Part shown: positions 4,413-63,161 of the stretch, piece by piece
Layout: each line of letters opens with the position of its first letter
Position numbering within the stretch: the first letter of the stretch is position 1
Assembly: GCF_011617465.1 (NCBI RefSeq)
Contig: NZ_CP050153.1
Span: 3,720,001-3,784,000, forward strand
Reading direction: 5' to 3'
From: Brevibacterium pigmentatum
GTDB taxonomy: Bacteria; Actinomycetota; Actinomycetes; Actinomycetales; Brevibacteriaceae
DNA: 64,000 bases
The notes under the pieces: generated by a model
Told to the model about the DNA's origin: nothing
Seen by the model: only the letters and a program-made list of their open reading frames with translations
Database searches by the model: none
Position numbers and translations under genes: made by a program

Positions 4413-4584
4413 TGTGCGCGGACCGCCCCTTCTGACATGAAACCAGGATATCGTTCGGCGTCACTGCACTGCCAACCGGGAGATCCCTTCGTGGCCGAGA
4501 TCTCGGGGAGCCGCCTCGGCGAGGATGGATTCCGTCCGCTGGGACGACGAATCCGCCCCCTATTCGAAGATGTTCCGAGACAGC

Positions 4585-4616
4585 AAATGGCCCGGATCAG
4601 ACGATCCGGGCCATTT
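4585..4616 (-). terminator. Strong hairpin after HU gene
   Basis: Perfect 14-bp stem, AAATGGCCCGGATC / GATCCGGGCCATTT, with a four-base loop, 17 bases after the HU stop codon. T-rich tail on the minus strand is short. Good intrinsic terminator candidate. Confidence 0.8.
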
Positions 4617-4632
4617 AACACTGCTGCGTCGA

Positions 4633-4920
4633 TCAGTTCGGGCTGCCAGCGGCACCCTTCAGCTTCGAACCAGCGGACAGCTTCACGGAGTAGCCGGCCT
4701 TGATCTGGATCTCTTCACCGGTCTGCGGGTTGCGACCCTTGCGAGCGGCACGCTCGGTACGCTCAACGGAGAGCCAGCCGGGGATGGTGAGCTTTTCGCC
4801 CTTGGCCACGACGTCGGAGAAGACGTCGAAGACACCATCGAGCACGTCCGAGACCTGCTTCTGGGTCAGGCCGGACTTCTCGGCAACTTCTGCAACGAGC
4901 TCACTGCGGTTCTTAGCCAT
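4633..4920 (-). CDS. hup: HU-family nucleoid protein
   Basis: 95-residue HU-type DNA-bending protein. It starts MAKNRSELVAEVAEKSGLTQ and carries the arm motif GRNPQTGEEIQI (about residues 61-72). Length matches a plain HU without the lysine-rich tail of mycobacterial or streptomycete HupB/HupS. It binds DNA as a dimer and shapes the nucleoid. A near-ideal ribosome binding site (TAAGGAGG) lies nine bases before ATG at 4920, consistent with a highly expressed protein. It lies just downstream of the S14-L33-L28 cluster on the same strand and is closed by a strong terminator. Confident. Confidence 0.97.
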   Translation of the reverse strand: MAKNRSELVAEVAEKSGLTQKQVSDVLDGVFDVFSDVVAKGEKLTIPGWLSVERTERAARKGRNPQTGEEIQIKAGYSVKLSAGSKLKGAAGSPN

Positions 4921-4989
4921 AAAAGTGTCCTCCTTAGGACAAGTCGGTAGGTCACCGGTCCGTTTTTCCGATGACGAACTTCCTCGAGA

Positions 4990-5295
4990 TTACCAGCTTG
5001 ACTTGGTAACGCCGGGCAACTCGCCGTTGTGAGCCATTTCGCGGAAACGAACTCGGGAGAGTCCGAACTTCCGGAGGTAGCCACGCGGACGGCCGTCGAC
5101 CTGGTCGCGGTTGCGAACGCGAACCGGCGAAGCATCGCGGGGAAGCTTCTGCAGGGCGAGGCGTGCCTCTTCGCGCTGCTCGTCGGTGGAGTCAGGGTGG
5201 GTCAGCTGACGCTTGAGAGTCGCGCGGCGCTCTGCATAGCGTTCAACGATGACGCGACGCTGCTTGTCTTTTGCGATCTTTGACTTCTTAGCCAT
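4990..5295 (-). CDS. rpsN: 30S ribosomal protein S14, zinc-independent type
   Basis: 101 residues, the long S14 form without CxxC zinc motifs (no cysteine at all). It has the conserved C-terminal block [20 protein letters not shown] ending in KSSW. S14 sits in the head of the 30S subunit. It is the third gene of a tight minus-strand cluster L28-L33-S14, six bases after the L33 stop. In many actinobacteria such cysteine-free paralogues form a zinc-starvation set repressed by Zur; I see no obvious Zur box here, and in Micrococcales this set is often the housekeeping one. Identification is secure; the regulation is open. Confidence 0.97.
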
Positions 5296-5301
5296 GTGCG
5301 C

Positions 5302-5469
5302 TCAGCGCTCCTCTCGGAAATCGACGTGCTTGCGGACTACGGGATCGTACTTCTTGAGCACGATGCGGTCCGGGGTGTTGCGGCGGTTCTTGCGGGTCAC
5401 GTAGGTGTACCCGGTGCCGGCCGTCGATTTGAGCTTGATGATGGGACGAACATCCTGTGCCTTAGCCAT
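5302..5469 (-). CDS. rpmG: 50S ribosomal protein L33, zinc-independent type
   Basis: 55-residue L33, beginning [20 protein letters not shown] and ending DFREER, with the conserved [13 protein letters not shown] core. It lacks the CxxC pairs of zinc-binding L33. Its ATG shares one base with the TGA of the upstream L28 gene (TGATG), so translation is probably coupled. It is a small basic protein of the 50S subunit near the E site. Too short for most gene scans, but length, sequence and position between L28 and S14 make it certain. Confidence 0.96.
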
Positions 5470-7606: not shown

Positions 7607-9022
7607 TTAGGCCAACATCAAGGTCGGGTCTTCCAGACCACGTCCGACGTCGGCGAGGAACTCCGAGATGATCTCGCCGTCGACGACACGATGATCGGCA
7701 CTGACCGACAGCGTGGTGATCTCACGCGGAACGATCTCGTCGCCCACCACCCACGGCTTCTTCCGGACCTGCCCGAACGCGAGGATCGCGGCCTCACCAG
7801 GATTGATGATCGGCGTACCGGCATCGACTCCGAAGACACCGACGTTCGTGATGGTGATCGTTCCGCCGGCCTGGTCAGCCGGCGGCGTCTTGCCCGACCG
7901 TGCCAGAGCGGTGAGGTCCTGAATGCCCTGCGCCAGTTCGCCCAGACCCATGGCCTGCGCGTTCTTGATGTTCGGCACGATCAGTCCGCGCGGAGTGGCG
8001 GCGGCGATGCCGAGGTTGACGTACTTCTTCACGACGATCTCGTCGCCCTCGAGGCACGAATTGATCCGCGGATTGCGCCCCACGGCCCATGCCACGGCCT
8101 TGGCGACGATGAGCAGCGGCGAGACCTTGACGTCCTCGCCCAGGAACTTCGTCGACTTCAGCCGGCGGACCATCGCCATCGTCTCGGTGACGTCCACGTC
8201 GAGGAACTCGGTGACATGCGGCATCGTGAAGGCCGAATCGACCATGGCCTTAGCCATCATCTTCGTCACGCCCTTGAACGGGATCCGCTCTTCGAGCGCT
8301 CCCTGGTCACTCGCCGAGGCGGCCGCCGGTGCCGTCGCACCCGCAGTGGGAGCGGTCGCCTGGTTCGCGGCAGCGTGCACATCGTCGCGTGTGACGTCCC
8401 CGCGGGGACCGGTCGGGGTCACCTGGGACAGGTCGACGCCCAGATCCTTTGCAAGCTTCCGCACGGGCGGCTTCGCCAGCGGCTTGCCCGGCGAGGCAGG
8501 TGCCGATGCGGGCTGTGCCTGCGCGGCCGGAGCTGCTGCGAGTGCGGGCGGGGCCACCTCCACCGCTGGGGCTGCCGGAGCCGCCGGGGCAGCGGGCGCT
8601 GCGGCAGCGGCAGGAGCCGGGACGGAAGCGCCCTTGCGCGGACGCCGCTTCGACGAGGTCTCCTTCGCTCCATATCCGACGAGGGTGGCTCCGCCGTCGG
8701 CTTCACCGGACTCCTCGGCCGACTTCTCAGCCGAACCGGAAGCAGGCGCACCAGCGGAGGCGGGGGCCGCCTCGGCGCTGGAATCATCTCCGCCGAACCG
8801 GATGATCGGGGTGCCGACCTCGATGGTCTGACCCTCCTCGACCAATAGGGCACCAACGGTGCCGGCCTGCGGGCTGGGCAGCTCGACGAGCGACTTCGCG
8901 GTCTCGATCTCGACGAGGATCTGATTGACGGTGACGGTGTCGCCGGGGGCGACCTTCCACGCGACGATGTCGGCCTCGGTCAGGCCCTCACCGACGTCGG
9001 GAAGAGGAAATTCGAATGACAT
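7607..9022 (-). CDS. bkdC: E2 dihydrolipoyl acyltransferase of branched-chain 2-oxoacid dehydrogenase
   Basis: 471 residues. One lipoyl domain (residues 1-80, modified Lys near 43 in IETAKSLVELPS) is followed by an Ala/Pro-rich hinge, a peripheral-subunit-binding domain (around 185-220, VRKLAKDLGVDLSQVTPTGP) and the acyltransferase domain, whose catalytic HRVVDG is near 444-449. It transfers acyl groups from E1 to CoA. It is the last gene of the E1alpha-E1beta-E2 operon, 18 bases after E1beta, with GAGGAGA upstream of the ATG. The single lipoyl domain and partner genes favour branched-chain rather than pyruvate substrates. No E3 gene follows. Confidence 0.93.
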   Translation of the reverse strand: MSFEFPLPDVGEGLTEADIVAWKVAPGDTVTVNQILVEIETAKSLVELPSPQAGTVGALLVEEGQTIEVGTPIIRFGGDDSSAEAAPASAGAPASGSAEKSAEESGEADGGATLVGYGAKETSSKRRPRKGASVPAPAAAAAPAAPAAPAAPAVEVAPPALAAAPAAQAQPASAPASPGKPLAKPPVRKLAKDLGVDLSQVTPTGPRGDVTRDDVHAAANQATAPTAGATAPAAASASDQGALEERIPFKGVTKMMAKAMVDSAFTMPHVTEFLDVDVTETMAMVRRLKSTKFLGEDVKVSPLLIVAKAVAWAVGRNPRINSCLEGDEIVVKKYVNLGIAAATPRGLIVPNIKNAQAMGLGELAQGIQDLTALARSGKTPPADQAGGTITITNVGVFGVDAGTPIINPGEAAILAFGQVRKKPWVVGDEIVPREITTLSVSADHRVVDGEIISEFLADVGRGLEDPTLMLA

Positions 9023-10018: not shown

Positions 10019-11172
10019 CAGGCCTCACCCGCATCGGCGAACGAGGCCTGGTATGCCAGGAATTCGGCACGTTCCTCGTCGACGAGGGAGTGGGGTTCCG
10101 CGGTGACATGCGCGAACATCTCGACGCCGTCGGGGTTCTCCATGGTCATGCAATTGTGGCGGATACGAGCGGCCAGGGTGTCGGCCTCGGCGTCCACCTC
10201 GGCGAAGAATTCGTCGCTGGTCTCGGTGTGCTTGTCCAGGTAGGCCTTGAGACGGGTGATCGGGTCGCGGTCCTCCCAGATCTCCTCTTCGGCCTTGTCG
10301 CGGTACTTCGTCGGGTCATCGGCCGTGGTGTGGGCACCACGACGGTAGGTGAAGGCTTCGATGAGCATCGGGCCGTTGCCGGCGCGCACGGAATCGAGGC
10401 TGGCGCGGGCGACGGAGTACATCGCGATGATGTCGTTGCCATCGACGCGGATTCCGGGGACTCCGAATCCTTCGCCGCGGGTGGACAGCGGCGCCGCGGA
10501 CTGGACGTGAGTGGGCTCGGAGATGGCCCACTGGTTGTTCTGGCAGAAGAACAGGACCGGCGCGTGGAAAGCTCCGGCGAAGGTCAGTGCTTCGGAGACA
10601 TCGCCCTGCGAGGTCGCACCGTCGCCGAAGCAGGCGATGGAGACGGTGTCGCGCTCGATGTCTCCGGTGCCGACATCACCGTCCATGGAGATGCCCATGG
10701 CGTAGCCGGTGGCATGCAGGGTCTGCGAGCCGATGACGATGGTATAGGTGTGGAACCGGTGCTCCTGCGGATCCCAGCCGCCGTGATTCTGACCACGGAA
10801 GATGCTGAGCAGAGTTTCAGGTTCGACACCGCGGGTGTAGGCGAGGCCGTGCTCGCGGTAGGTGGGGAAGACGAAATCTTGCGGGCGAGCGGCCCGTCCC
10901 ATGCCGATCTGGGCTGCTTCCTGTCCGAACAGCGGCGCCCACAGGCCCAGCTGTCCCTGACGCTGCAGGGCAGCTCCTTCGGCGTCGATGCGGCGGACCA
11001 GGACCATGTCCCGGTAGAAGCCGCGCAGATCCTCATCGGTGAGTTCTGCTGCGAAGGCGTCGTACTCACCGGATTCGACGCGATTTCCGTCTTCGGTGAG
11101 CATCTGGATCATTCTGGGTTCCGAGGACTGACTGTGGGCAGCGCCGGTTCCCACTGAAATGTTGGAGGTCAT
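10018..11172 (-). CDS. bkdA: E1 alpha subunit of branched-chain 2-oxoacid dehydrogenase
   Basis: 384 residues from the chosen start. The thiamine diphosphate/Mg motif is clear: GDGATSQGDVSEAL (from about 183) through QNNQWAIS (about 212-218). The start is ATG at 11172 (MTSNISVG) because AAAGGAGA precedes it by about seven bases; the in-frame ATG at 11205 has a worse site. First gene of the operon. RYREHGLAY- and HFHTYT-like segments match E1alpha of branched-chain complexes. No dedicated regulator or E3 is encoded beside it. Confidence 0.94.
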   Translation of the reverse strand: MTSNISVGTGAAHSQSSEPRMIQMLTEDGNRVESGEYDAFAAELTDEDLRGFYRDMVLVRRIDAEGAALQRQGQLGLWAPLFGQEAAQIGMGRAARPQDFVFPTYREHGLAYTRGVEPETLLSIFRGQNHGGWDPQEHRFHTYTIVIGSQTLHATGYAMGISMDGDVGTGDIERDTVSIACFGDGATSQGDVSEALTFAGAFHAPVLFFCQNNQWAISEPTHVQSAAPLSTRGEGFGVPGIRVDGNDIIAMYSVARASLDSVRAGNGPMLIEAFTYRRGAHTTADDPTKYRDKAEEEIWEDRDPITRLKAYLDKHTETSDEFFAEVDAEADTLAARIRHNCMTMENPDGVEMFAHVTAEPHSLVDEERAEFLAYQASFADAGEA

Positions 11173-11593
11173 TTCAGTTCTCCTTTGTTCGAGGTCCATC
11201 TTCACCGGAGGTGACCAGTGGTGGACCGTGTCCGTCGGGCAGGCCCTCGGAGGTGAGAACTCGCCCTCGAGTGATCTGATTCACAGGTGCTATCACAATA
11301 CCGAATCCACTCACTGCTTGCCACTCTCCCCATGCGGTTCGAGTATCAAAAGTGCAGGTCAGGAACAGACTATGGCCCGAGCTCGACACATGTGGCCGAG
11401 TTCCAAAGCGTTCCGTGGACAATTGTCGATCACGGCAGAGATGCTCCATCGTCCGACCAATGCACATCCGAGCACCGAGGCCGCCCGTCGTCGGATGGTC
11501 GAGCTCGGTGTCCGTGAGGTCCGTTCGTCGCCGAGGCGGCCCATCGTTTCGATGGCGAACGCCGTGTCCGCGGGACCGTCCGCGCGACCGAGT
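11173..11593. other. Intergenic region upstream of the bkd operon
   Basis: About 420 bases. It should hold the bkd promoter. I find no operator I can name and no credible gene in either strand. One exact copy of the 14-mer TCGCCGAGGCGGCC lies at 11528-11541. Confidence 0.4.
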
Positions 11594-13111
11594 TCAGTGG
11601 CGTTTGCGCTTGCCCTGGTAGTCGCGCGTCTTCGCGAGGTCACCGGTGAAGAAGCCCGAGTTCTTCGAGGTGAAGCGGTCGAAGCCGGGATTGCCGGCCC
11701 GCAGCAGCAGGCCGATCGAAGCAGCATAGGCGACCGACGAGTGTGCCGCCCCGGCCGAAGCGAACATCTCATCGAGCTCGGCATCGGACTTGTTCGCAAG
11801 CTCGGGGACCTTGCGCAGTTCATCGGGGTCGTAGTCGACGGTGATCGTCGACCAGTTCTTCGCCGCCGGGTTCTCGTTGCCGTCGAGATCGGGCACGAGG
11901 TCCTGTTCATGTTCGATGGAGAGCACGTCGATTTCCGAATCGATGGCGAAATCGGAGACCGGAGCACCGACCGTCATCAGTGCAGTGACGTTGACATCGT
12001 CGAGGAACGCCGGGTCCGCGGCCAGAGATCCTGCGGTGATCCCTCCCTGCGAACACCCGACGAGCATGACCTCGGCGTCGCGTCCGATCCCGGCATCGGC
12101 GATCGCCTGGCGCACCATCTCACGCATCACGGTGTCATTGCCGGCCATCCCCTGCACGTTCGTCGTCAGGTCCGTCGTGTTGACCCCGGACTTCGGCGAC
12201 CAGTCGGTGGTGGCCGGAACGTAGACGATATAGCGGGTCGTCCCATCGGGGCCGACGATCTCCTCGATGCGGACCTGTCCGGAATCGGCTCCGCGGTGAC
12301 AGTTCGCTTCGCGGATGAAGAGGTCTTCGACATCACGCGGCGGCTCCTTGTGCGGCGGAGTCAGCCCTTTCGCCCTCCACACTTCGACGTCGGAGGGCAG
12401 CAGCAGTCCGAACGCGTTCGCACCGGCCAGGACCCAGATCGTCATCGACGTCGAGTCGTGCGGCCAGAATGCGTGGTCGCCATCGGCGTTGAGGACGAAC
12501 GGCGGCAGACCCAGGAACCCGATTACGACGCCCGGAAGCACGTGCTCGATGACGGCACCGGAGACGTCGGACTGCTCGAACGCGAACGTGATCAGCGCTT
12601 CCTTCGCTTGCGCCTTCGTTTTGCCCAGGTCGATGCCGAACTGTTTGGTGATGACATCGTCGAGTCCGGTGGCGTCGAGGATCTTCGTGACCACGACGAC
12701 CTGGGCACCGACGACGAGTGCGACGGGGATGACGACAGGCAGACTGAGAGCTATGACACGGCCGGCAGCGTAGCCGAGGGCGTCGAGCAGTCCGCCGAAG
12801 ACTTCGCTGATCCCCTTCTCCGCCTGTCGGTAGGCAAAGGCAGCGGCCCGAACTGCGACCAGTGTGGCTTCGAGCTCGAGCACCGAGGCGGCGAGCTGGC
12901 TGTGGAATCGGATCCTGCAGGCATCGAGGTTGAGCGCAGTCACGGGGGCCGGGACCTGGGTGAGCAGAGTCGCGAGATCGAAGTCCCCGACAGCAGCGTC
13001 GACGGTCAGGTCGCCGATACCTGAGATGACGGTCTGCAGTGCGTCTCCGCTGCCATCGGCGCGTTCGTCGACGGTGATCCCCCCGCCGCCGCGCGTCGTC
13101 GAATCGATCAT
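11594..13111 (-). CDS. Large cassette protein with membrane segments and GCSQGG hydrolase-like motif
   Basis: 505 residues, third gene of a small WXG-like cassette. The N-terminal part (about 60-120) is helical. A hydrophobic stretch follows (about 140-165, VIALSLPVVIPVALVVGAQVVVV). The C-terminal half resembles an alpha/beta hydrolase: VMLVGCSQGGITAGSLA carries a nucleophile-elbow-like GxSxG, followed by VNVTALMTVGAPVSDF and LSIEHEQDLVPDLDG, which could hold the acid and other catalytic residues. This suggests a lipase/esterase-like effector or processing enzyme linked to type VII secretion, but no tested relative comes to mind. GGGGAGA lies upstream of the ATG. Gene certain, function unknown. 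Confidence 0.8.
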   Translation of the reverse strand: MIDSTTRGGGGITVDERADGSGDALQTVISGIGDLTVDAAVGDFDLATLLTQVPAPVTALNLDACRIRFHSQLAASVLELEATLVAVRAAAFAYRQAEKGISEVFGGLLDALGYAAGRVIALSLPVVIPVALVVGAQVVVVTKILDATGLDDVITKQFGIDLGKTKAQAKEALITFAFEQSDVSGAVIEHVLPGVVIGFLGLPPFVLNADGDHAFWPHDSTSMTIWVLAGANAFGLLLPSDVEVWRAKGLTPPHKEPPRDVEDLFIREANCHRGADSGQVRIEEIVGPDGTTRYIVYVPATTDWSPKSGVNTTDLTTNVQGMAGNDTVMREMVRQAIADAGIGRDAEVMLVGCSQGGITAGSLAADPAFLDDVNVTALMTVGAPVSDFAIDSEIDVLSIEHEQDLVPDLDGNENPAAKNWSTITVDYDPDELRKVPELANKSDAELDEMFASAGAAHSSVAYAASIGLLLRAGNPGFDRFTSKNSGFFTGDLAKTRDYQGKRKRH

Positions 13112-13216: not shown

Positions 13217-14008
13217 TCACTTCGGGGCTCCTGCCGTCAGCGTCCGGGTGAGCACGGCGCTGAGCAGTTGTCGCACCGCCGCATCTCCCGCGACGACCTC
13301 GCTGTCGACGGTGACGGAGTCTCCGGCGCGCTCGATGACCGGCCGAAACCAGACCCCGTCCTTTCGACGGAGGAACTCCAGTCCCGTGCCTCCCTGTCCG
13401 GATGCCCAGCTGAGCGTGAGCACGCAATCCTGTTCGACGAGTTCGGCGAGATCCTCGACGACGTGCCCGATCCGTCCCGGTTCGATCCTGCGCAGCAGCT
13501 GATGCTGCGCGAAGTCCTCAAGCCCTTCGCCCTGCAGAGCGAGGACCGCGAGCCCGACGCCCGGCCCCAGGCACAGCGCCAGGTGCACGGTTTCGGCTCC
13601 CGATGACACGACGACGCTGATGCGCGTGGTCACTCGGTCGAGTTCGGAGGCGAAGCCGCGCAGCCATGCGGTGAGGACATCGATGTCTCGCTTCGCCGTC
13701 CCCGTGACCCCGCTAGCCGTCCCCGGCGCCGCGCTGGCCGCCCCAGCGGCGACAGCCCCCGAGGCTGTGGCGGCATCCCCAACCACTGCGTCAGCCGTGC
13801 CTGGTTTTGTCCCACCCAGTTCCGTTGCGGCGCTGGCCCTCCCAACCTTCGCCGAGGCGGCTCGGGAGTCCTGTCCGACCCGGCGAGGGAGCAGATCAGG
13901 CGGCCAGAGACGACGCAGACGTTCCGGCAGCCTGATGATCCGGTCGAGGTCGACGACGATCCAGCTGTCGATTCCGGCGGTCTCTCGCGCGGCGGGTCGG
14001 GCGTTCAC
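13217..14008 (-). CDS. Unrecognised protein of a WXG-like cassette
   Basis: 263 residues, GTG start at 14008 overlapping the previous stop (GTGA). Residues 1-40 hold a Leu/Arg-rich start (DLDRIIRLPERLRRLW). A low-complexity Ala/Gly/Thr linker (about 50-108) is followed by a folded C-terminal domain with alternating beta strands (RISVVVSSGAETVHLALCLG, then DCVLTLSW and GVWFRPVIERAG). The second half could be an EspG-like chaperone for the adjacent small secreted protein, judging only by size, strand pattern and position. I do not recognise it with confidence. The linker contains a copy of the TCGCCGAGGCGGC motif. Confidence 0.7.
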   Translation of the reverse strand: MNARPAARETAGIDSWIVVDLDRIIRLPERLRRLWPPDLLPRRVGQDSRAASAKVGRASAATELGGTKPGTADAVVGDAATASGAVAAGAASAAPGTASGVTGTAKRDIDVLTAWLRGFASELDRVTTRISVVVSSGAETVHLALCLGPGVGLAVLALQGEGLEDFAQHQLLRRIEPGRIGHVVEDLAELVEQDCVLTLSWASGQGGTGLEFLRRKDGVWFRPVIERAGDSVTVDSEVVAGDAAVRQLLSAVLTRTLTAGAPK

Positions 14009-17142: not shown

Positions 17143-18513
17143 TCAGACGGACACGAGATGCTTGTCCTCGTCCACCTCGGCGAGGGTCTTCTTGCCCATG
17201 CTGCGGGCGAGGATGAGGGTCGGAACTCCGGCGACGACGATGACGACGGTGGCGTAGATCGCCGGCGCCAGCGTGATGCCCGTCGACGACATGAGTGCCG
17301 TGGCGATGAGCGGCGACAGCCCGCCGAAGAGGACGGTGGCGATGTTGTAGCCGATCGCCATACCGGAGAAGCGGCTCGTGCCGGTGAATTGCTCGGGCAC
17401 CATGGCGGCGGCCACCGCGCTCCACCCGGCCGCGGGAATCGCGAGGAACGCAACACCGAAGACCGCCCCGCCTGAGGAGCTGCCGCCCAGCAGAGCGTAG
17501 GCGGGAATGATCGTGAACACGAAGACGGCCATGAGCACCGCCAGGGCAGGTTTGCGGCCGAATTTGTCCGAGGCGAGGCCGAAGAACGGGGTGACGACGA
17601 TGGCGACGACGGCCGCAACCGTACCCAGAGCCAGGGAACCGGAGTTCGGGACCTTCGCCACCTCCTCGATGTAGGTGGGCACATAGGTGATGTTGAGGAA
17701 GTAGCTGACCGAGCCGATCGAGGAGATGAGGAAAGCGACGAGGATCGCCCGCGGCTGCTCGAGGATCGCGGTGATGAGCGGGGAGCGCTCGAGTCCGACG
17801 TCCTTCTTCTCCTTCTCCGCTTTCTGCAGCCGCTTGAAGGTCTCCGTCTCCTCCATCATCGACCGCAGCGGAACCATGAGGATGGCGAGCACTGCACCGA
17901 GGACGAACAGCAGCCGCCAGCCCCAGGAATCCATCGCTTCGGGACTGAGCGTATTCGCCAGCAGCGCACCGGATCCCACCGCCAGGAGGGCACCGACCTC
18001 GCTGTTGGCCGCGGCCCAACTCGCGGCCAGGCCGCGGCGTCCCGGGCCCGCCGACTCCATGAGGAAGACCATGATTCCGGTGTATTCCGCACCGACGGAG
18101 AATCCGGACAGGCAGCGCAGGGCCACCATGAGGACGCCCGCCCAGATGCCGATCGTGTCATAGTTCGGGATCACCGCGATTCCAAGCATCGAGATCGCCA
18201 TGAGGACGGCGGAGATGATGAGCGTCGATCGCCGCCCGATCCGATCGCCCAGGTGGCCGAAGACCATCGCGCCCAACGGCCGGAAGAGGAATCCCGCCGC
18301 ACCGACCCCGAGGGTCAGGAGCAGAGAATCGGTCTGGTCGCCGAAGAACTCCTTGGTCAGGGTCGTGGCGACGTAGAAGAAGATCGAGAAGTCGTACCAC
18401 TCGACGACGGTGCCGAAGGCCGCGACGAACATCGACCTGCGCCGGCCTCTCTCCCGCTCTCGGCTTGTTGCCTGGGTGGGTGATGCGGGGTGGTTCCGAT
18501 CCGACGCGGTCAT
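17143..18513 (-). CDS. MFS transporter, MHS family
   Basis: 456 residues from ATG at 18513, about 12 membrane segments. It has TVVEWYDFSIFFYVATTL near the start and GHLGDRIGRRSTL in the 2-3 loop, both marks of the metabolite:H+ symporter group. It is a second MHS carrier in this window, only distantly like the one at 597-1955. The start is placed at MTASDRNHP because the upstream in-frame extension to 18618 is not hydrophobic-family sequence; the ribosome site there is weak. Substrate probably an organic acid or betaine; not determinable. It stands alone, divergent from a hydrolase gene. Confidence 0.85.
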   Translation of the reverse strand: MTASDRNHPASPTQATSRERERGRRRSMFVAAFGTVVEWYDFSIFFYVATTLTKEFFGDQTDSLLLTLGVGAAGFLFRPLGAMVFGHLGDRIGRRSTLIISAVLMAISMLGIAVIPNYDTIGIWAGVLMVALRCLSGFSVGAEYTGIMVFLMESAGPGRRGLAASWAAANSEVGALLAVGSGALLANTLSPEAMDSWGWRLLFVLGAVLAILMVPLRSMMEETETFKRLQKAEKEKKDVGLERSPLITAILEQPRAILVAFLISSIGSVSYFLNITYVPTYIEEVAKVPNSGSLALGTVAAVVAIVVTPFFGLASDKFGRKPALAVLMAVFVFTIIPAYALLGGSSSGGAVFGVAFLAIPAAGWSAVAAAMVPEQFTGTSRFSGMAIGYNIATVLFGGLSPLIATALMSSTGITLAPAIYATVVIVVAGVPTLILARSMGKKTLAEVDEDKHLVSV

Positions 18514-24058: not shown

Positions 24059-24077
24059 GGAGCCGCCTCGGTGGTGG

Positions 24078-30943: not shown

Positions 30944-31020
30944 ACCTTCGATTGTAGGAGCCGGGCGACACGGAAGGGTCGGGGTGAGAGCAAACGCACA
31001 GCCACCTCGGCGAGGGTCGA

Positions 31021-36487: not shown

Positions 36488-36491
36488 TTAG

Positions 36492-48478: not shown

Positions 48479-48525
48479 GGGCCGCCTCGGCGAGGGACGA
48501 TTTCAAACGGAAAAGGGGTGCGGCA

Positions 48526-49737: not shown

Positions 49738-49752
49738 ACTAGGGTGGGTGCC

Positions 49753-51588
<1,836 letters not shown>

Positions 51589-51618
51589 ACCGCCTCGGCC
51601 CCTCAAACACCCCATTTG

Positions 51619-51674: not shown

Positions 51675-51684
51675 TCCTGGGAGG

Positions 51685-52245
51685 TCAGTTGGTCTTCGTG
51701 ACGGTGACGTCGATCGGGGTCGGGTTGGTGAAGATGTCGAAGACGGGGCAATGAGCGTCCACGGTCTCCTGCAGCTTCTGGTAGTCCTCGTTGCTGTCGG
51801 GTCCGGCGATGTTGACGCTCACGCGCACGGACGAGAATCCGGGGCGCACGGTCTCATCGGCGCCGAAGAGTCCCCGCACATCAAGGTCGCCTTCAGCGCT
51901 GACATCGAGTTCGTCGATGGTCAGTCCGAGGTTCTGGGCGTAGAGGCGGTAGACGACGACCTGGCAGGAGATGAGTGCGCCGAGGGCGTATTCGACGGGG
52001 TTCGGGGCGGCGTCGTCCCCGGCCAGCGGGGTCGGTTCGTCGACGGTGAAGGTGTGGCGGCCGGCGGTGATCAGTGAGGACACCGAACCGCGGGCGGTGC
52101 CCGAGGCCGAGAAAGTCAGCTGCCCGTTCTTCGCCGAGGCGGCCAGTCGTTCGTTCCATGCGTTTCCGGCCGTGGTCAGTCGCGTGGCGCGTTCTTCGTC
52201 GCTGATGGCGATGGTCGTGTCGAACTCGGTGGTTGCTGCAGTCAT
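51685..52245 (-). CDS. OsmC family protein
   Basis: 186 residues with the OsmC fold. Two conserved cysteines are present, ALISCQVVVYRLY (about 92) and AHCPVFDIF (about 162), separated by the usual spacing. Such proteins reduce organic or lipid hydroperoxides with thiols. The GRHTFTVDEPTPLAGDDAAPNPVEYALGALISC stretch is typical of the YhfA-like OsmC branch. Monocistronic, convergent with recQ through repeat A. Confidence 0.9.
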   Translation of the reverse strand: MTAATTEFDTTIAISDEERATRLTTAGNAWNERLAASAKNGQLTFSASGTARGSVSSLITAGRHTFTVDEPTPLAGDDAAPNPVEYALGALISCQVVVYRLYAQNLGLTIDELDVSAEGDLDVRGLFGADETVRPGFSSVRVSVNIAGPDSNEDYQKLQETVDAHCPVFDIFTNPTPIDVTVTKTN

Positions 52246-52460: not shown

Positions 52461-53762
52461 ATGATGACCTCTGACCGGACAGCCGCCTCGGCGAATCCAA
52501 GTGCACTCACCCGCGCAGACTGCGAACACCGCGATGCGAACGATCCCCTGCGGAAATTCCGCGGGGAATTCTTGATCCCCGAAGACACGATCTACCTCGA
52601 CGGGAACTCGCTCGGTCCCCGCACGAAGGGTGCGGCCGAACGCGCCCAGGACGTCATCACCGACGAATGGGGCACGGGTCTCATCGGATCGTGGAACACC
52701 GCCGGCTGGTGGGATCTGCCGGCAAAGCTGGGTGAGAAGGTCGCCGGGCTCGTCGGCGGCGGGGCCGGGTCGACCGTCGTCACGGACACCACGTCGATCA
52801 ATCTGTTCAAGGCCGCCTCGGCGGCGCTGAAGATTCAGGCCGAGGACTCCCCGGACCGGCGGGTCATCCTCACGCAGCGGGAGAACTTTCCCTCCGATAT
52901 CTACATGCTCCAAGGATTGGCCGAGCAGCTCGGCGACGGATACGAGGTCCGCCTCGTCGACGATGAGGAAGTCACCGCAGGGTTCCCGACCACGATGTCC
53001 GACGAGGTGGCCCTCGTCGTCCTCACCCATGTGAACTACCGGACGGGTCGGCTCTTCGATATGGGCACGACCACCTCGGCGATCCATTCCGGCGGAGCCA
53101 TGGTCATCTGGGACCTGTGCCATTCGGCCAGTGCGCTGCCCATCGATCTGGCCGGAACCGGTGCGGACATGGCGATCGGCTGCACGTACAAGTTCCTCAA
53201 CGGCGGACCCGGCTCCCCCGCATTCATCTGGGTCGCCGAGGCGCTGCAGAACCGATTCAGCCACCCTCTGTCGGGGTGGTGGTCGCATGCGCAGCCCTTC
53301 GACATGGCCCCGGACTACCGGCCCGCCGACGGTATCCGCCGCTACCTCACCGGAACGCAGGGAATCCTGTCGATGTCCGTGGCGGAACTCGGCCTCGACA
53401 TCCACTCGCGGATGGACATGGAACAGATCCGGGAGAAGTCCCTGGCCCTGTCGGACCTGTTCATCGACCTCGTCGATGAGCGTTTGGCCGATCACCCGGT
53501 CGAGGTTGTCACCCCACGTGCGCACGCTCATCGCGGGTCCCAGGTCTCGATCCGTCACCCGGAGGGATTCGCGGTGATGAGCGCGCTCATCGAACGCGGA
53601 ATCATCGGCGACTACCGCGAGCCGGAGGTGCTGCGGTTCGGATTGACCCCGCTCTACATCGGGTTCACCGAGATGTGGGACACCGTCGAGGCCCTGCGCG
53701 ATATCCTCGACAACCGACTCTGGGACACCCCGGCGCACAAGGTCCGCGGCGCCGTCACCTAA
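52461..53762 (+). CDS. kynU: Kynureninase
   Basis: 433 residues from ATG at 52461 (GGAAAG five bases upstream; the next codon is also ATG). It cleaves kynurenine to anthranilate and alanine with PLP. The start RADCEHRDANDPLRKFRGEF, IYLDGNSLGP and the PLP lysine in CTYKFLNGGPGSPAF (near 244) are family marks. No other kynurenine-pathway gene (tryptophan dioxygenase, formamidase) is beside it, so the rest of the pathway is elsewhere. Its stop TAA is directly joined to repeat copy B. Confidence 0.95.
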   Translation: MMTSDRTAASANPSALTRADCEHRDANDPLRKFRGEFLIPEDTIYLDGNSLGPRTKGAAERAQDVITDEWGTGLIGSWNTAGWWDLPAKLGEKVAGLVGGGAGSTVVTDTTSINLFKAASAALKIQAEDSPDRRVILTQRENFPSDIYMLQGLAEQLGDGYEVRLVDDEEVTAGFPTTMSDEVALVVLTHVNYRTGRLFDMGTTTSAIHSGGAMVIWDLCHSASALPIDLAGTGADMAIGCTYKFLNGGPGSPAFIWVAEALQNRFSHPLSGWWSHAQPFDMAPDYRPADGIRRYLTGTQGILSMSVAELGLDIHSRMDMEQIREKSLALSDLFIDLVDERLADHPVEVVTPRAHAHRGSQVSIRHPEGFAVMSALIERGIIGDYREPEVLRFGLTPLYIGFTEMWDTVEALRDILDNRLWDTPAHKVRGAVT

Positions 53763-57068: not shown

Positions 57069-57153
57069 CGTCGCGATTCGTCACGGCAGGTCCCTCGCCG
57101 AGGCGGCCCCACGTTCCGCACAAACGTGACCGGCAGCGCCCCGTCGGGTCCCC

Positions 57154-58014
57154 TCAGCTCTCGGCGAGTCGCTTCTTCTCGATCTCGACGTCGAAATCGG
57201 CGGCGGGCCACTGCGGGTCGATGCCTTTGAGGACGTCAAGCAGCAGTCGCTGCACGGCCAGCCGGGCGTACCATTTCCGGTTCGCCGGCACGACGAACCA
57301 GGGAGCCGCCCCGGTGGAGGTACGGTCGAAGGCGGCCTGGTAGGCATCCATGTAGTCCGGCCACAGGAGTCGCTCGTCGACGTCTCCCGGATTGTATTTC
57401 CAGTGTTTGTCGGCACGGTCGAGCCTTTCGGCCAGGCGCTCCTTCTGCTCGTCCGGGGAGATGTGGAGCATGACCTTGACAATGTGCACCCCTGCCGCGA
57501 CGAGTTCGGCTTCGAAGTCGTTGATGGCTGAGTAGCGGCGCTCGATCTCGGCGCCGTCGGCGAGTTCGCGGACGCGGCCGATGAGCACATCCTCGTAGTG
57601 GGAGCGGTCGAAGACGCCGATCATGCCGGGCCCGGGCACGCGTGGGCGGATGCGCCAGAGGAAGTCGTGGGCGAGTTCCTCGTCGGTGGGTTTCTTGAAG
57701 GCCGCGAGTTCGACACCCTGCGGGTCGACGGCGCCGACGACATGGCGGACGATTCCGCCTTTGCCGGCGGTGTCCATGGCCTGCAGGACGAGGAGAACGG
57801 CGGGGCCGGATTCCTCGTCGTGGTGAGCGGCGAAGAGGCGTTCCTGCAGATCGCTGAGCTCGGTCGACAGCGCTTCCAGATCCTTCTTCCCCGACTCCTT
57901 GTCCCCGTCGTAGCCGGGAGTGGATTCGGGGTCGACCTCGCCGAGGCGGAATCCCTCCCCGGCGCGGAGAAGTGGGGCGGGGTCGGTCGTCCAGTTGCTC
58001 GTCGGCTCACTCAT
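57154..58014 (-). CDS. ppk2: Polyphosphate kinase 2 family protein
   Basis: 286 residues from ATG at 58014. Walker A in AMDTAGKGG (80-88), Walker B-like FDRSHYEDVL (about 140), the lid region KERLAERLDRADKHWKYNPGD and the ending VPANRKWYARLAVQRLLLDVLKGIDP define PPK2. It transfers phosphate between polyphosphate and nucleoside mono- or diphosphates. The class (AMP or ADP as acceptor) cannot be assigned by eye. Convergent with the OsmC gene; lies beside a membrane protein gene. Confidence 0.92.
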   Translation of the reverse strand: MSEPTSNWTTDPAPLLRAGEGFRLGEVDPESTPGYDGDKESGKKDLEALSTELSDLQERLFAAHHDEESGPAVLLVLQAMDTAGKGGIVRHVVGAVDPQGVELAAFKKPTDEELAHDFLWRIRPRVPGPGMIGVFDRSHYEDVLIGRVRELADGAEIERRYSAINDFEAELVAAGVHIVKVMLHISPDEQKERLAERLDRADKHWKYNPGDVDERLLWPDYMDAYQAAFDRTSTGAAPWFVVPANRKWYARLAVQRLLLDVLKGIDPQWPAADFDVEIEKKRLAES

Positions 58015-59716: not shown

Positions 59717-59858
59717 CTCCACCTCGGCTCGTCTCGTCGCTCCGTGCCCGGTCCGGTGCCGAGCGTCCTACCAGCCACTGTAATCCGCTTCGACATCCAG
59801 TGAGCCATTTGTCTGGTGTTCCGTTCCCCATCGCCGAGGCGGCCGCTAGGCTGAGGAG

Positions 59859-60731
59859 ATGACGCAGCCGACGCTCATCCTCGTCCACGGCGCTTTCGCC
59901 ACTTCCTTCTCTTTCGCCCCGTTGCAGGCCGAACTCGCCTTCCACGGAGTGCGCTCGGCTGCGGTTGACCTGCCGGGTCACGGTTTCGCCGCCACCTTCC
60001 CGCTCGGGTATCAGGCGCCTCAGGACCTCGCCCGGTTCACCTCGGAGCCGGGATCGCTCAGGGGTGTGACCGTCGACGACAATGTCCGGGCTCTCACCGA
60101 GGCGGCGGCCCGTGCCAAGGAGCACGGACCGGTGGTCATCGTCGCCCACAGCCGCGGCGGGGCCACATTGACCGCGCTGGCGAATGCGCATCCGGAGCTC
60201 ATCGACCACATGGTCTATGTCTCCGCATGGGCACCGGTGGACCTCCCGGCCGCCGAATACAATGCCGAACCCGAAATGAAGACCGTCGACAATGCGGCTC
60301 TCGCTCGGGCCCTGGCCGGTGATCCCGGGCAGTTGGGACTGCTGCGCTGCAATTTCCGCCAGGCCGACCTGGAAGTCCTCGACGGGTTGAAAGCACTCTT
60401 CTGCGCCGACGTCAGCGATGACGAATTCCGCATCTTCCTGAACTCACTGCAGCCGGATGAGAACCTCGACGCGGGAGGGCCCGAACACCGGGCGCAGGCG
60501 GGCACGTGGGGGACGATTCCGCGTACGTTTGTCCGCCTCGGCGAGGATCGGAGCGTGCCGACCGCGATGCAGGATCGCCTCATCCGCGAAGGTGATGCGC
60601 TCACCCCGGACAATCCCTACCGGGTGCGCACGCTCATGTCGTCCCACGTGGGATGGCTGATCCGCCCCGCCGAGGCGGCCATGCAGATGGCGCAGATCGC
60701 CGCCGACGTTGCCGCGGAGTCCGACAGGTAA
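59859..60731 (+). CDS. Alpha/beta hydrolase
   Basis: 290 residues. LILVHGAFATSFSFAPLQAEL forms the HG oxyanion hole, VDLPGHGFA follows, and VIVAHSRGGATLTALA (Ser near 92) is the nucleophile elbow. An acid and His are expected near DRSVPTAMQ and MSSHVGWLIRP. The family includes esterases and haloalkane-type hydrolases; the nearest match is the AB hydrolase EstC/methyl-ketone-type group, not certain. It is closed by a strong terminator and convergent with the Ohr-like OsmC gene. Confidence 0.85.
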   Translation: MTQPTLILVHGAFATSFSFAPLQAELAFHGVRSAAVDLPGHGFAATFPLGYQAPQDLARFTSEPGSLRGVTVDDNVRALTEAAARAKEHGPVVIVAHSRGGATLTALANAHPELIDHMVYVSAWAPVDLPAAEYNAEPEMKTVDNAALARALAGDPGQLGLLRCNFRQADLEVLDGLKALFCADVSDDEFRIFLNSLQPDENLDAGGPEHRAQAGTWGTIPRTFVRLGEDRSVPTAMQDRLIREGDALTPDNPYRVRTLMSSHVGWLIRPAEAAMQMAQIAADVAAESDR

Positions 60732-60750
60732 AGCGCAGGTGCCGACGGAA

Positions 60751-60781
60751 GAGGCCCCGACCGTGACAGTCGGGGCCTCTC
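60751..60781. terminator. Terminator between hydrolase and OsmC genes
   Basis: AGAGGCCCCGAC / GTCGGGGCCTCT, a perfect 12-bp stem with seven-base loop, between the convergent stops at 60731 and 60800. Confidence 0.85.
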
Positions 60782-60799
60782 GTTCTCTGCTCAGCCGGT

Positions 60800-61303
60800 T
60801 CAGCTGAGTTGGAAGTTGTCCGGGTTCTTGTACGGTTCGATCTCGACGACCGGGGTGCCCTTGCCCATGAGCAGTTTGGAGATGGGGCAGCGAGCGTGGG
60901 CGCGGGCAGCGTACTTCTCGGCGTCGGTGTCCGAGACCCCTTCGATGGAGATGAACGCCTTCGGAGCGAAGTAGAAGCCGTTGCCGGAGGGTTCGTTGTG
61001 CAGTTCGACCTCGACGCGCACACGTGAGAGTGCTTCGATCTCGTTGACCGCGAGAACGACCTTGAGCGTTTCACCAAGGCAGGTCGACCAGGCCATGGCA
61101 AGGAACTGTTCCGGGTTGTTGCCCTCTTCGACCCGTGAGGTCGGGGCGGTGGACAGGTTCTGGCCGTCTTCGACGCGCACCTCGCCCGAGGTGCCGCCGA
61201 GGTTCTCGACCTTCGCGGTGTAGATCGGCGCACTCGGGCTCTTCGGCTCATCCGCATCTCCGGTCGGAGCCTGCGGCTGGGCGTATCCGGGTTTCTCAGT
61301 CAT
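60800..61303 (-). CDS. Ohr-like OsmC family peroxiredoxin
   Basis: 167 residues. Cysteines in AWSTCLGETL (about 75) and ARCPISKLL (about 142), plus SAPIYTAKVENLGGTSGEVR, mark the Ohr/OsmC fold. The reactive Cys pair reduces organic hydroperoxides, recycled by lipoyl thiols in relatives. A 20-residue polar N-terminal extension is unusual. No OhrR-type regulator is adjacent. Confidence 0.9.
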   Translation of the reverse strand: MTEKPGYAQPQAPTGDADEPKSPSAPIYTAKVENLGGTSGEVRVEDGQNLSTAPTSRVEEGNNPEQFLAMAWSTCLGETLKVVLAVNEIEALSRVRVEVELHNEPSGNGFYFAPKAFISIEGVSDTDAEKYAARAHARCPISKLLMGKGTPVVEIEPYKNPDNFQLS

Positions 61304-61402
61304 TGCACCATGCTACGACAGGCACGCAACAAGGTCACTGGCGTTTCAGTGAATGGTCAGTAACAAAACCCGCAGACCCATCCGCCGTCCCGGCGGCTCC
61401 GA

Positions 61403-63001
61403 ATGATCACTATGAATCGGAAAACCCGTGCAACCCACCGTTTCCGCGGCGTCGTGGCAGGCATCGCCGCCGCACTCATGATGTTCGGTCTCGCAGACCT
61501 CATCGCGCGTGCCTTCACCCCGAGCGCCGCACCTCTGCTCACCCTCGGTCAGGCGATCATCCCACTGGCTCCCCCGGCGGCGATCAAACCCGTCATCGCC
61601 TTGTTCGGTGACAACGACAAACTCGTCCTCGTCCTCTCCACCGGCCTCGGTGCGATCGTCCTCGCCGGGCTCATCGGAGCACTGGCGGTTTCCCGCCGGC
61701 GCCTGGCCACGAGGCTGCTGGTTGTCGCCGGGCTCGTCCCAGTCATCGTCATCATCATCCGTCCCGAGGCGGGTGCCTTCGACGTCATTCCCACGTTCAT
61801 CGGCATCGCGGCCGGCATCGCGGTCTTCGTCATGCTGCTGCGCCTCGGAACACCCCAAACCCTCGCCGAGGCGGCCGACCGTCCCGATATCGCCCCCAGT
61901 ATCGCCCGCGGCTCCCAGCCGTCGGATCCGCTGAGTCGACGTCGCTTCTTCGGCCTCGCCGGGGCCCTCGGCGCCATCGGGGCCGGCACCATCGCCGCCG
62001 GCCAGACCGTTGCTTCGCTGGCTCAGGATGCCGGAGCCGCGGTGGCCAAGCTCGTTCTGCCCACCCCTGCGAAGAAGGCGGCCGCGATCCCTGCGGCCGC
62101 GAGCACCGGCGTCGACGGCACGGTCCCCTTCGTCACCGAGGCCAAGGACTTCTACCGCATCGACACGGTCCTCTCACCACCGGTCATCGACCCCGAACAG
62201 TGGTCGCTGCGCATCCACGGCATGGTCGAGAACGAGCTCACCCTGACGATGGACGACGTGCTCGACCTGCCCCTCGAAGAGCACCACATCACGCTCACCT
62301 GCGTATCCAATCCCGTCGGCGGAGAGCTCGTCGGCAATGCGACCTGGCTCGGCTATCCAGTCCGCGAACTCCTCGCCCGAGCCCGCCCGAGCTCGCAGGC
62401 CGATATGGTTCTCTCCCACTCCTTCGACGGATTCACCGCCTCGACCCCGATCGGTGCACTGACCGATGACCGTGCGGCCCTCCTGGCGGTGGGAATGAAC
62501 GGCGAACCGCTCACCCCGATCCACGGGTTCCCCGCCCGCCTCGTCGTTCCCGGACTCTACGGATTCGTCTCCGCGACGAAGTGGGTGACCGAACTCGAGG
62601 TCACCCGCTTCGATGAGAAGACCGCCTACTGGACCGACCGCGGGTGGGATGCCAAAGCCCCCATCCTCGTCGCTTCCCGCATCGAGGTCCCCAAGCCGTT
62701 GGCCAAGGTCCCTGCCGGGGACATCCGGGTCGGCGGCACCGCCTGGGCACAGCGTTCAGGGATCGAGCGTGTCGAGGTCAAGCTCGACGACGGCGAGTGG
62801 ACGCAGGCGGATCTCGCCGAGGAAGTCACGATCGACACCTGGCGGCAATGGCGGGCCGAATTCGCCGAGGTGGCCGCGGGCTCCCATACCGTCACCGTGC
62901 GCGCCACGGACAAGGACGGCACCGTGCAGACGTCGAAACGTCGAGATTCGATCCCGAACTCGGCCACCGGGCACCACCACATCCAATTCCGCGTCGAATA
63001 G
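61403..63001 (+). CDS. Membrane-anchored molybdopterin oxidoreductase (sulfite oxidase-like)
   Basis: 532 residues. The N-terminal part has four to five membrane helices (about 15-165), followed by a Tat-like [12 protein letters not shown] and the molybdenum-binding domain. [20 protein letters not shown] (Cys 300) supplies the Mo ligand; [22 protein letters not shown] is the conserved pterin-binding region. A C-terminal Mo-co dimerisation domain follows. Similar to actinobacterial membrane sulfite oxidase-like proteins, active outside the membrane. ATG at 61412 is an alternative start. A fasciclin lipoprotein follows. Confidence 0.9.
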
Positions 63002-63161
63002 CTGTCCCTCCGGGGCCGCCTCGGCGAAGGAATTCTCATATTTCTTCCCCATCCACCCATCCGAACCGGGCACCGCACCGAATACCCAGTACACAGCGAG
63101 CAATGGAGATCACTTCACAGCTGTGCGCGAATACGCATCACTGTTGATTAGGAGAAGAACA

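What the first reader, a model, noticed from the sequence alone, without database searches (positions are those of the whole stretch)
4511..63027. Highly iterated 14-mer TCGCCGAGGCGGCC, in the style of a DNA-uptake or HIP-type motif
Seen directly: exact copies on the plus strand at 11528, 23355, 45939, 46908, 51330, 52131, 57095, 59831 and 61863, and on the minus strand at 46326-46339, 48480-48493 and 63014-63027. By my hand count the core GCCGAGGCGG occurs about 40 times, roughly evenly on both strands. A rough composition estimate gives about one core and far fewer than one 14-mer. Copies lie between genes (4511, 11528, 48480, 57095, 59831, 63014) and inside genes, where they read F/L-A-E-A-A or A-A-S-A, often in loops or insertions. 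So it is not just codon use. No strand skew is visible. Candidates: DNA-uptake sequence, HIP1-like mark for a methyltransferase, or a nucleoid-protein site.
Basis: partly seen in the sequence, partly recalled or inferred. Interest (0 to 1): 0.75.

Follow-up and report, generated by a model that had tools for sequence, protein, structure and literature searches.

The report
Candidate DNA-uptake motif in Brevibacterium
Many genomes of the bacterium Brevibacterium carry more than a thousand copies of one short DNA word, kept almost unchanged between close species and spelled slightly differently by different lineages, much like the self-recognition tags that some other bacteria use to take up DNA of their own kind.

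Summary
The window (Brevibacterium, B. linens/B. sediminis clade) holds 13 copies of the 14-mer and 42 of the core; dinucleotide shuffles give 0.00 and 0.93. The 3.91-Mb genome has 291 14-mers, 141 + and 150 -. Between genes the consensus is (CCC)TCGCCGAGG[C/T]GGCC. It is not codon use: it exceeds synonymous-codon shuffles several-fold and is denser between genes. It has no leading/lagging-strand bias. Third codon positions inside motifs are 166/166 identical in B. sediminis, flanks 83%. Of 57 Brevibacterium genomes 38 are rich in the T-form, 10 intermediate, 9 poor; of 361 sampled genomes of other genera none exceeds 24 14-mers. Preferred spelling (GGCGG or GGTGG) varies about six-fold between species. 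A recently transferred island, assigned to the ICE BreLI, holds 2 copies where 18.6 are expected. This resembles DNA-uptake sequences, and comEA-comEC and Tad pilus genes are present. Uptake itself is inferred, not shown; both spellings coexist within genomes, unlike clean dialects. Methylation is disfavoured, not excluded. If right, it would be, as far as I could search, the first such sequence in a Gram-positive lineage.

The parts
8311..8324 (+).
11528..11541 (+). 14-mer, intergenic; 10-base core unchanged in 2 of 7 aligned relatives, CACC variant in 2 more
23355..23368 (+). 14-mer, in gene (FAEAA)
45939..45952 (+). 14-mer, in gene (FAEAA)
46326..46339 (-). 14-mer, in gene (PPRRV frame)
46908..46921 (+). 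14-mer, in gene (LAEAA)
48480..48493 (-). 14-mer, intergenic
51330..51343 (+). 14-mer, in recQ-like gene (RRGGP frame)
52131..52144 (+). 14-mer, in gene (AASAK)
57095..57108 (+). 14-mer, intergenic
59831..59844 (+). 14-mer, intergenic
61863..61876 (+). 14-mer, in gene (LAEAA)
63014..63027 (-). 14-mer, intergenic
3453..3463 (+). CGCCGAGGCGG, genic
4511..4521 (-). CGCCGAGGCGG, intergenic
8767..8777 (-). CGCCGAGGCGG, genic
13850..13860 (+). CGCCGAGGCGG, genic
18874..18884 (+). CGCCGAGGCGG, genic
20244..20254 (-). CGCCGAGGCGG, genic
20511..20520 (-). GCCGAGGCGG core without the leading C
20899..20909 (+). CGCCGAGGCGG, genic
21836..21846 (-). CGCCGAGGCGG, genic
21929..21939 (-). CGCCGAGGCGG, genic
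22016..22026 (-). CGCCGAGGCGG, genic; all 11 bases unchanged in 6 of 7 aligned relatives while the flanks differ
24119..24129 (-). CGCCGAGGCGG, genic
25904..25914 (-). CGCCGAGGCGG, genic
26633..26643 (+). CGCCGAGGCGG, genic (NRLGG frame)
27597..27607 (-). CGCCGAGGCGG, genic
28555..28565 (+). CGCCGAGGCGG, genic
29235..29244 (-). GCCGAGGCGG core without the leading C
30286..30296 (+). CGCCGAGGCGG, genic
30557..30567 (+). CGCCGAGGCGG, genic
33230..33240 (-). CGCCGAGGCGG, genic
46642..46652 (-). CGCCGAGGCGG, genic
47149..47159 (+). CGCCGAGGCGG, genic
49169..49179 (-). CGCCGAGGCGG, genic
51590..51599 (-). GCCGAGGCGG core without the leading C, just after a stop codon
52483..52493 (-). CGCCGAGGCGG, genic
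52813..52823 (-). CGCCGAGGCGG, genic
57939..57949 (+). CGCCGAGGCGG, genic
60533..60543 (-). CGCCGAGGCGG, genic
60668..60678 (+). CGCCGAGGCGG, genic
10194..10204 (-). variant CGCCGAGGTGG, genic
17172..17182 (-). variant CGCCGAGGTGG, genic
28030..28040 (+). variant CGCCGAGGTGG, genic
31002..31012 (-). variant CGCCGAGGTGG, intergenic
33558..33568 (+). variant CGCCGAGGTGG, genic
39749..39759 (-). variant CGCCGAGGTGG, genic
42558..42568 (+). variant CGCCGAGGTGG, genic
44239..44249 (+). variant CGCCGAGGTGG, genic
48157..48167 (+). variant CGCCGAGGTGG, genic
49632..49642 (+). variant CGCCGAGGTGG, genic
53071..53081 (-). variant CGCCGAGGTGG, genic
62863..62873 (+). variant CGCCGAGGTGG, genic
12881..12891 (+). 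variant CACCGAGGCGG, genic
21822..21832 (+). variant CACCGAGGCGG, genic
24063..24073 (-). variant CACCGAGGCGG, intergenic
27894..27904 (-). variant CACCGAGGCGG, genic
42690..42700 (-). variant CACCGAGGCGG, genic
43512..43522 (-). variant CACCGAGGCGG, genic
44461..44471 (+). variant CACCGAGGCGG, genic
48593..48603 (-). variant CACCGAGGCGG, genic
60095..60105 (+). variant CACCGAGGCGG, genic

Best explanation
The motif (core CGCCGAGG[C/T]GG, fullest form CCCTCGCCGAGGCGGCC) is a lineage-specific self-recognition tag of the DNA-uptake-sequence (DUS) kind. Proposed working: free DNA carrying the motif is preferentially bound and taken up by this bacterium's transformation machinery (Tad/Flp pilus, ComEA, ComEC); recombination with tagged kin DNA then restores damaged copies, so that copies born by point mutation accumulate wherever they are tolerated and stay unchanged, while lineages drift in preferred spelling as the receptor changes. 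Shown: the motif, its enrichment, conservation between close species, lineage distribution, differing spelling preferences, scarcity in one mobile island, and presence of comEA-comEC and Tad-type genes. Inferred: that the strains transform, that uptake or recombination is motif-biased, and that this drives the accumulation. The receptor is unknown; ComEA, whose last helix-hairpin-helix looks different in the four motif-rich sequences compared, is only a lead.
For: 291 14-mers in the genome against 0 for the reversed control. In the first 464 kb examined the genic 12-mer occurs 77 times against 4.6 in synonymous-codon shuffles, and between genes 28 times against 0.00 in a Markov model. Equal strands and no replichore bias (leading 259, lagging 278; between genes 42 and 42). 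Five intergenic head-to-head pairs 13-55 bp apart, a layout that I recall from uptake-sequence terminators. Motif sites fully conserved 38/46 and 44/52 in the two nearest species against 104/309 and 121/348 for composition-matched control 11-mers; third codon positions 166/166 and 179/182 against 83% and 82% in flanks. Spelling: the ratio of C-form 12-mers to T-form 11-mers runs from 0.20 (G012) to 1.28 (G019) among the rich genomes counted in both searches; some sites switch C to T in place (7 of 30 aligned C-form sites in G073); the motif-rich rows form one clade in a purB tree (100/99). Confined to this genus among the genomes sampled. The 35.6-kb stretch shared at 99.99% by B. linens and B. 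antiquum has 2 copies against 18.6 expected at matched GC, while a chromosomal control has 60 against 51.2. comEA-comEC-holA in the own genome, one clear Tad cluster and a second T2SSE/T2SSF pair; ComEC in 57 of 57. Neisseriaceae DUS have dialects that follow phylogeny (PMC3630211, passages) and atypical DUS distributions in ICEs (PMC7371117, abstract).
Against: No sequence-biased uptake in any Gram-positive and no natural transformation of Brevibacterium turned up in the searches (listings). ComEC and PF00437 ATPases are present in motif-poor species too, so competence genes do not track the motif, and they do not prove competence; the ComEA and ComEC scores lie below NCBIfam's curated cut-offs, though over Pfam's. 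Both spellings coexist within each rich genome, unlike the uniform Neisseriaceae dialects; in G063 the 60 kb sampled favour the C form (36 to 11) though its genome-wide counts point the other way (393 C-form 12-mers and 978 T-form 11-mers, listed for G024; G024 and G063 have identical T-form counts). Conservation and scarcity in foreign DNA would also be seen for other chromosome-wide binding motifs. Nine motif-poor or intermediate genomes carry a high-scoring PF00437 copy that no rich genome has. Intergenic sites turn over in distant species (motif identity 0.41 against flank 0.57 in G063, 0.41 against 0.51 in G092, 0.64 against 0.68 in G026). Spacing is not more even than random (41 pairs within 100 bp, 32.4 expected).
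Confidence: 0.47

Rival explanations
1. Binding site of an abundant intracellular DNA-organising or regulatory protein. The near-dyad CGCC-GA-GGCG would bind it at well over a thousand sites per chromosome, and copies would be kept by selection on chromosome structure or expression.
For: Strong base-specific conservation; near-dyad with a fixed GA centre; somewhat denser near gene ends (convergent gaps 1.06/kb, tandem 1.01/kb, divergent 0.69/kb). Scarcity in the island fits this equally well, as recently arrived DNA.
Against: No replichore polarity and only a mild, uneven fall from origin to terminus; no fixed spacing; so strict and dense a site for a nucleoid protein would itself be unusual (my judgement). 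Lineage spellings would need a changing protein here too.
Confidence: 0.24
2. HIP1-like methyltransferase mark: an orphan methyltransferase modifies the motif, and repair or methylation-linked selection keeps it frequent.
For: HIP1 of cyanobacteria is a highly iterated word tied to orphan methyltransferases (PMC4390886, passages). 56 of 57 Brevibacterium genomes have a PF01555 match, most of one orphan-sized class (430 aa in the own genome, L093:2118-3410 -). The single A in CCGAGG would suit one-strand methylation (inference).
Against: No PF00145 match in the own genome and in 20 of the 38 motif-rich genomes, own included; no PF02384 match in 11 of 38, own included. PF01555 matches are as common in motif-poor species. 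The PacBio methylome note on B. linens SMQ-1335 reports CGGANNNNNNTTC and DTGAAT only (PMC5105094, whole text); that strain's own motif count was not checked, and m5C is poorly seen by PacBio (recalled). Other methyltransferase families were not searched.
Confidence: 0.12
3. Chi-like recombination hotspot recognised by the strand-resection enzyme during repair.
For: Density and over-representation are in the range of Chi-type sites (recalled); lineage spellings would fit an evolving enzyme.
Against: No leading-strand preference (259 leading, 278 lagging); enrichment between genes; conservation in place is stronger than a merely over-represented word needs (inference).
Confidence: 0.08
4. By-product of codon use, mutation bias or a small mobile repeat.
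For: In-gene copies mostly encode AEA or ASA; the 14-mer occurs at low numbers in many relatives of other genera; motif density rises with GC.
Against: Synonymous-codon shuffles and intergenic counts; only the GA centre is enriched among ten centre pairs; little conserved sequence beyond about 21 bp; third positions near-invariant in close species.
Confidence: 0.03

Closest known systems
DUS dialects of Neisseriaceae (10- to 12-mers, read by ComP)
   Same: Length, more than a thousand copies, both strands, spellings around a constant core that differ by lineage, competence genes present (PMC3630211, passages); unusual distribution in ICEs (PMC7371117, abstract).
   Different: Other sequence; Gram-positive actinobacterium with Tad/Flp-type genes; two spellings coexist in one genome; no ComP candidate; no uptake data; several congeners lack the motif.
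USS of Pasteurellaceae
   Same: Short strict core with a weaker flanking extension, in genes and between genes (recalled; PMC2346458 seen only in a search listing with the start of its abstract).
   Different: Other sequence and phylum; the extension here is C-rich.
HIP1 of cyanobacteria
   Same: Highly iterated word whose frequency differs between relatives, some with replaced words (PMC4390886, passages).
   Different: HIP1 is a perfect 8-bp palindrome tied to GATC/CGATCG methyltransferases; here the centre is asymmetric and no methyltransferase family searched tracks the motif.
Chi sites
   Same: Over-represented short oligomer.
   Different: No replichore polarity here.

Membership tests
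DNA uptake sequence (DUS/USS) | Short word over-represented far beyond codon and composition models | tested here: met
DNA uptake sequence (DUS/USS) | Both orientations equally, no replichore polarity | tested here: met
   (sample of 864 kb; terminus taken at the midpoint)
DNA uptake sequence (DUS/USS) | Lineage spellings on a constant core | tested here: met
   Met as a preference, not as clean replacement: C-form/T-form ratio 0.20-1.28; related word SCCGAGGTSG in G025 (30 against 3.4); weak, about 3-fold, GCCGAGGCC in G029, G030, G015, G013; nothing clear in G002 and G003
DNA uptake sequence (DUS/USS) | Atypical, here scarce, in recently arrived mobile DNA | tested here: met
   One island only, 2 against 18.6; the rest of that contig, 18.9 kb, has 5 against 8.5
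DNA uptake sequence (DUS/USS) | Uptake machinery encoded | tested here: met
   comEA-comEC and Tad-type genes; also present in motif-poor species
DNA uptake sequence (DUS/USS) | Dedicated receptor such as ComP | tested here: inconclusive
   Only ComEA was compared (8 sequences); the clade signature is confounded with phylogeny
DNA uptake sequence (DUS/USS) | Motif-bearing DNA is taken up or transforms better | not testable with these tools
   needs an assay
HIP1-type iterated palindrome | Perfect palindrome | tested here: not met
   Centre is GA/TC; palindromic centres are not enriched
HIP1-type iterated palindrome | Cognate orphan methyltransferase tracks the motif | tested here: not met
   PF00145, PF01555 and PF02384 do not track it; other families not searched
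Chi / polar segregation motifs | Leading-strand bias | tested here: not met
REP/MITE repeat | Extended conserved element beyond the core | tested here: not met
   Information falls off beyond about 21 bp

The most novel reading that the evidence does not exclude
Probability: 0.43. Interest if true: 0.9.

Novelty: new variant of a known kind. Interest (0 to 1): 0.75.

Why it matters
Sequence-tagged uptake is known, as far as I recall and could search, only from Neisseriaceae and Pasteurellaceae. An independent case in Gram-positive actinobacteria would show that self-tagging can evolve again with a different pilus, would give a natural experiment in changing spelling within one genus (38 rich, 10 intermediate and 9 poor genomes by the T-form count), and would offer a practical handle: adding the motif to DNA might help to transform these cheese and soil bacteria.

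Tried and rejected
A haloarchaeal origin (first guess; paper search) was dropped. Hairpin or terminator role: flanks of 84 intergenic copies fold only slightly better than mononucleotide shuffles (left -9.30 against -8.38, right -11.40 against -10.98 kcal/mol). Chi/KOPS-type polarity: none. Mobile repeat: little conserved flank. PF00145 and PF02384 methyltransferases: no match in the own genome. Rfam: no match in the window. ComEA comparison: lead only. Plasmid similarity search with window 45000-52000: 6 records with partial, low-identity matches, half of them at recQ-like genes. The Brevibacterium genome papers PMC6579920 and PMC5719810 hold neither 'competence' nor 'natural transformation'.

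Limits. Genome-wide statistics beyond exact pattern counts rest on 40 stretches of 20 kb plus the window (864 kb, about 22% of the genome); searches used the first 20 stretches plus the window. Gene calls are mine and simple. The ortholog test covers the window only, 7 relatives, 60 motif-variant sites of which 26 to 52 were aligned per species; unaligned sites were left out, and control 11-mers holding GAGG, CCGAGG or CCTCGG were excluded. The island was assigned to BreLI from a LanC-like match (PF05147) in the two strains named as carriers in PMC5719810 and its 99.99% identity between two species, not from mapped borders; expected counts there use the window's genome, not that of B. linens. 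Other-genus genomes are an even draw from a larger group. On checking this report I found the spelling preferences less clean than first written (both coexist; G063 sample and genome disagree) and lowered the main reading from 0.50 to 0.47, the novel case from 0.45 to 0.43, and raised the binding-protein rival from 0.22 to 0.24.

Full report
1. What was seen and whether it holds. The window lies at 3,720,001-3,784,000 of a single 3,913,130-bp contig. purB matches put it in Brevibacterium, nearest B. sediminis (98%) and B. linens ATCC 9172 (97%). Dinucleotide shuffles give 0.00 14-mers and 0.93 cores. The whole genome has 141 + and 150 - copies of the 14-mer, and none of the reversed word.

2. 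Not codon use. In 464 kb (20 stretches and the window) the genic 10-mer occurs 155 times against 22.7 +- 4.5 in 30 synonymous-codon permutations, the 12-mer 77 against 4.6, the 14-mer 30 against 1.2; in 53 kb of intergenic DNA the 12-mer occurs 28 times and the 14-mer 19 times, against 0.00 in a second-order Markov model. The 14-mer is five times denser between genes than in them (0.379 against 0.072 per kb). Genic copies lie mainly in the frames that read AEA or ASA, with fewer in the others: the protein filters where copies may sit, but does not cause them.

3. Anatomy. In 864 kb the twelve most enriched 10-mers and 12-mers are this word, its variants and overlaps. Among ten centre dinucleotides between GCC and GGC arms, only GA/TC is enriched: CGCCGAGGCG 421 against at most 17 for any other centre. 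The commonest single changes to CGCCGAGGCGG (327 sites, 63 of them between genes) are T at the ninth base (121, 9 between genes) and A at the second (89, 11 between genes); no other change exceeds 4 between genes within the 11-mer. Around 84 intergenic copies the information extends from CCC upstream to GGCC(C) downstream, about 21 bp, then falls off. So this is a strict word with a weak extension, not a repeat element.

4. Layout. dnaA, dnaN, recF and gyrB stand at the contig start, so the origin is there; taking the terminus at the midpoint, the motif is on the leading strand 259 times and on the lagging 278 times, and 42 and 42 times between genes. Density by distance from the origin is 0.63, 0.64, 0.77, 0.48 and 0.48 per kb. 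Pairs closer than 100 bp number 41, against 32.4 expected at random; five intergenic pairs are head to head 13-55 bp apart. In tandem gaps 30 of 45 copies point against the genes.

5. Conservation. Against seven relatives, motif sites are fully conserved in 38/46 and 44/52 aligned cases in B. sediminis and B. linens, where composition-matched control 11-mers manage 104/309 and 121/348; further out it is 20/47, 21/49, 27/49, 5/26 and 10/28 against 5-13%. Third codon positions inside motifs are 166/166 and 179/182 identical, against 83% and 82% in flanks 6-36 bp away in the same genes; in the other five species 73-92% against 54-67%. First and second positions are also higher in the motif, except in G092 (0.834 against 0.839). 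Between genes the two near species show 0.95 and 0.97 motif identity against 0.73 and 0.80 in flanks; G073 and G020 also favour the motif, but G063, G092 and G026 do not, so intergenic sites turn over with distance.

6. Distribution and spelling. CGCCGAGGTGG counts in 57 Brevibacterium genomes fall into 38 with 472-1037, 10 with 80-221 and 9 with 5-35. The 12-mer CGCCGAGGCGGC ranges from 3 to 772 in 37 genomes of the genus, own included. Among 361 sampled genomes of other genera in the order the 14-mer never exceeds 24, against 291 here. In a purB tree the ten motif-rich rows form one clade (100/99). The ratio of C-form 12-mers to T-form 11-mers runs from 0.20 (G012) through 0.40 (G024) to 1.21 (own) and 1.28 (G019). 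In samples, G012 has 6 C-form and 25 T-form 11-mers in 80 kb; G063 has 36 and 11 in 60 kb although its genome-wide counts lean to T. Some sites switch C to T in place (7 of 30 aligned C-form sites in G073). G025, a small-genome species, has a related word SCCGAGGTSG, 30 against 3.4. GCCGAGGCC words are about three-fold over shuffles in G015, G030, G013 and G029, a weak hint; G002 and G003 show nothing clear. Both spellings coexist in rich genomes, so these are preferences rather than clean dialects.

7. Mobile DNA. A LanC-like search of six genomes found matches in two, B. linens ATCC 9172 and B. antiquum CNRZ 918, both named as carriers of the ~96-kb ICE BreLI (PMC5719810, passages). The two contigs share 35,645 bp at 99.986% identity, a recent transfer. 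That stretch has 2 motif copies against 18.6 expected at matched GC (P 1.7e-6); the other 18.9 kb of the B. linens contig has 5 against 8.5; a chromosomal control from B. linens has 60 against 51.2. The motif therefore marks the resident chromosome.

8. Machinery. The own genome has comEA (SLBB and helix-hairpin-helix) next to comEC and holA by Pfam; the NCBIfam comEA and ComEC models match below their curated cut-offs. It has one clear Tad cluster (T2SSE, two T2SSF, TadE) and a second T2SSE/T2SSF pair with DUF4244. A Tad/Flp pilus with ComEA and ComEC is the transformation apparatus of the actinobacterium Micrococcus luteus (PMC6370729, passages). ComEC is present in 57 of 57 congeners, so it does not discriminate. 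Methyltransferases: PF00145 in 26 of 57 and not in the own genome; PF02384 in 41 of 57 and not in the own genome; PF01555 in 56 of 57, rich and poor alike. The methylome note on B. linens SMQ-1335 reports two other motifs only (PMC5105094, whole text).

9. Reading. Length, copy number, both strands, conservation at synonymous sites, lineage spellings on a constant core, scarcity in an ICE and encoded uptake machinery together resemble uptake sequences of the Neisseriaceae (PMC3630211, passages; PMC7371117, abstract and outline). What is missing is any functional test and a receptor, and the spellings are not as clean as in that family. I put 0.47 on a DUS-like role, 0.24 on another binding protein, 0.12 on methylation, 0.08 on a Chi-like role. 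Literature: the listings of searches showed no report of this motif, of transformation in Brevibacterium, or of an uptake sequence in Actinobacteria; most listed papers were not opened, and the library lacks most subscription papers.

Noticed in passing
window 51619-51674, 53763-53816, 54615-54674: A separate dispersed, nearly perfect ~56-bp palindrome beginning CTACC and ending GGTAG, REP-like, with 14 further copies in the sampled genome and tens of short matches in sister genomes such as G059, G060, G073 and G020, while G092, G062 and G067 have 8, 5 and 7 matches of any kind. It does not contain the 14-mer.
   Followed up: partly
own genome sample and L136-L139: The palindrome CGATATCG is enriched: both-strand tally 184 against 40 expected (92 sites) in the own sample, 22 against 3.7 in G013.
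   Followed up: no
window 33241-45939: No copy of the main CGCCGAGGCGG form in 12.7 kb, though TGG and CACC variants occur there.
   Followed up: no
L093:2118-3410 (-): Orphan PF01555 methyltransferase, 430 aa with DPPY motif; 56 of 57 Brevibacterium genomes have a PF01555 match, most of them one of this size class; target unknown.
   Followed up: partly
G076, G009, G014, G029, G016, G004, G078, G025, G003: Nine motif-poor or intermediate genomes carry a high-scoring PF00437 copy (233-247 bits) not seen in any motif-rich genome; in three of them its neighbours look like a Tad cluster.
   Followed up: partly
L164-L171 (comEA): Four motif-rich ComEA share GIGPKTFESL and a one-residue shorter loop in the last helix-hairpin-helix, unlike four poorer species; confounded with phylogeny.
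   Followed up: partly
L030: A record titled Vibrio cholerae strain 35D encodes a purB 67% identical to that of the window on a stretch of 68% GC, probably contamination of that assembly.
   Followed up: no
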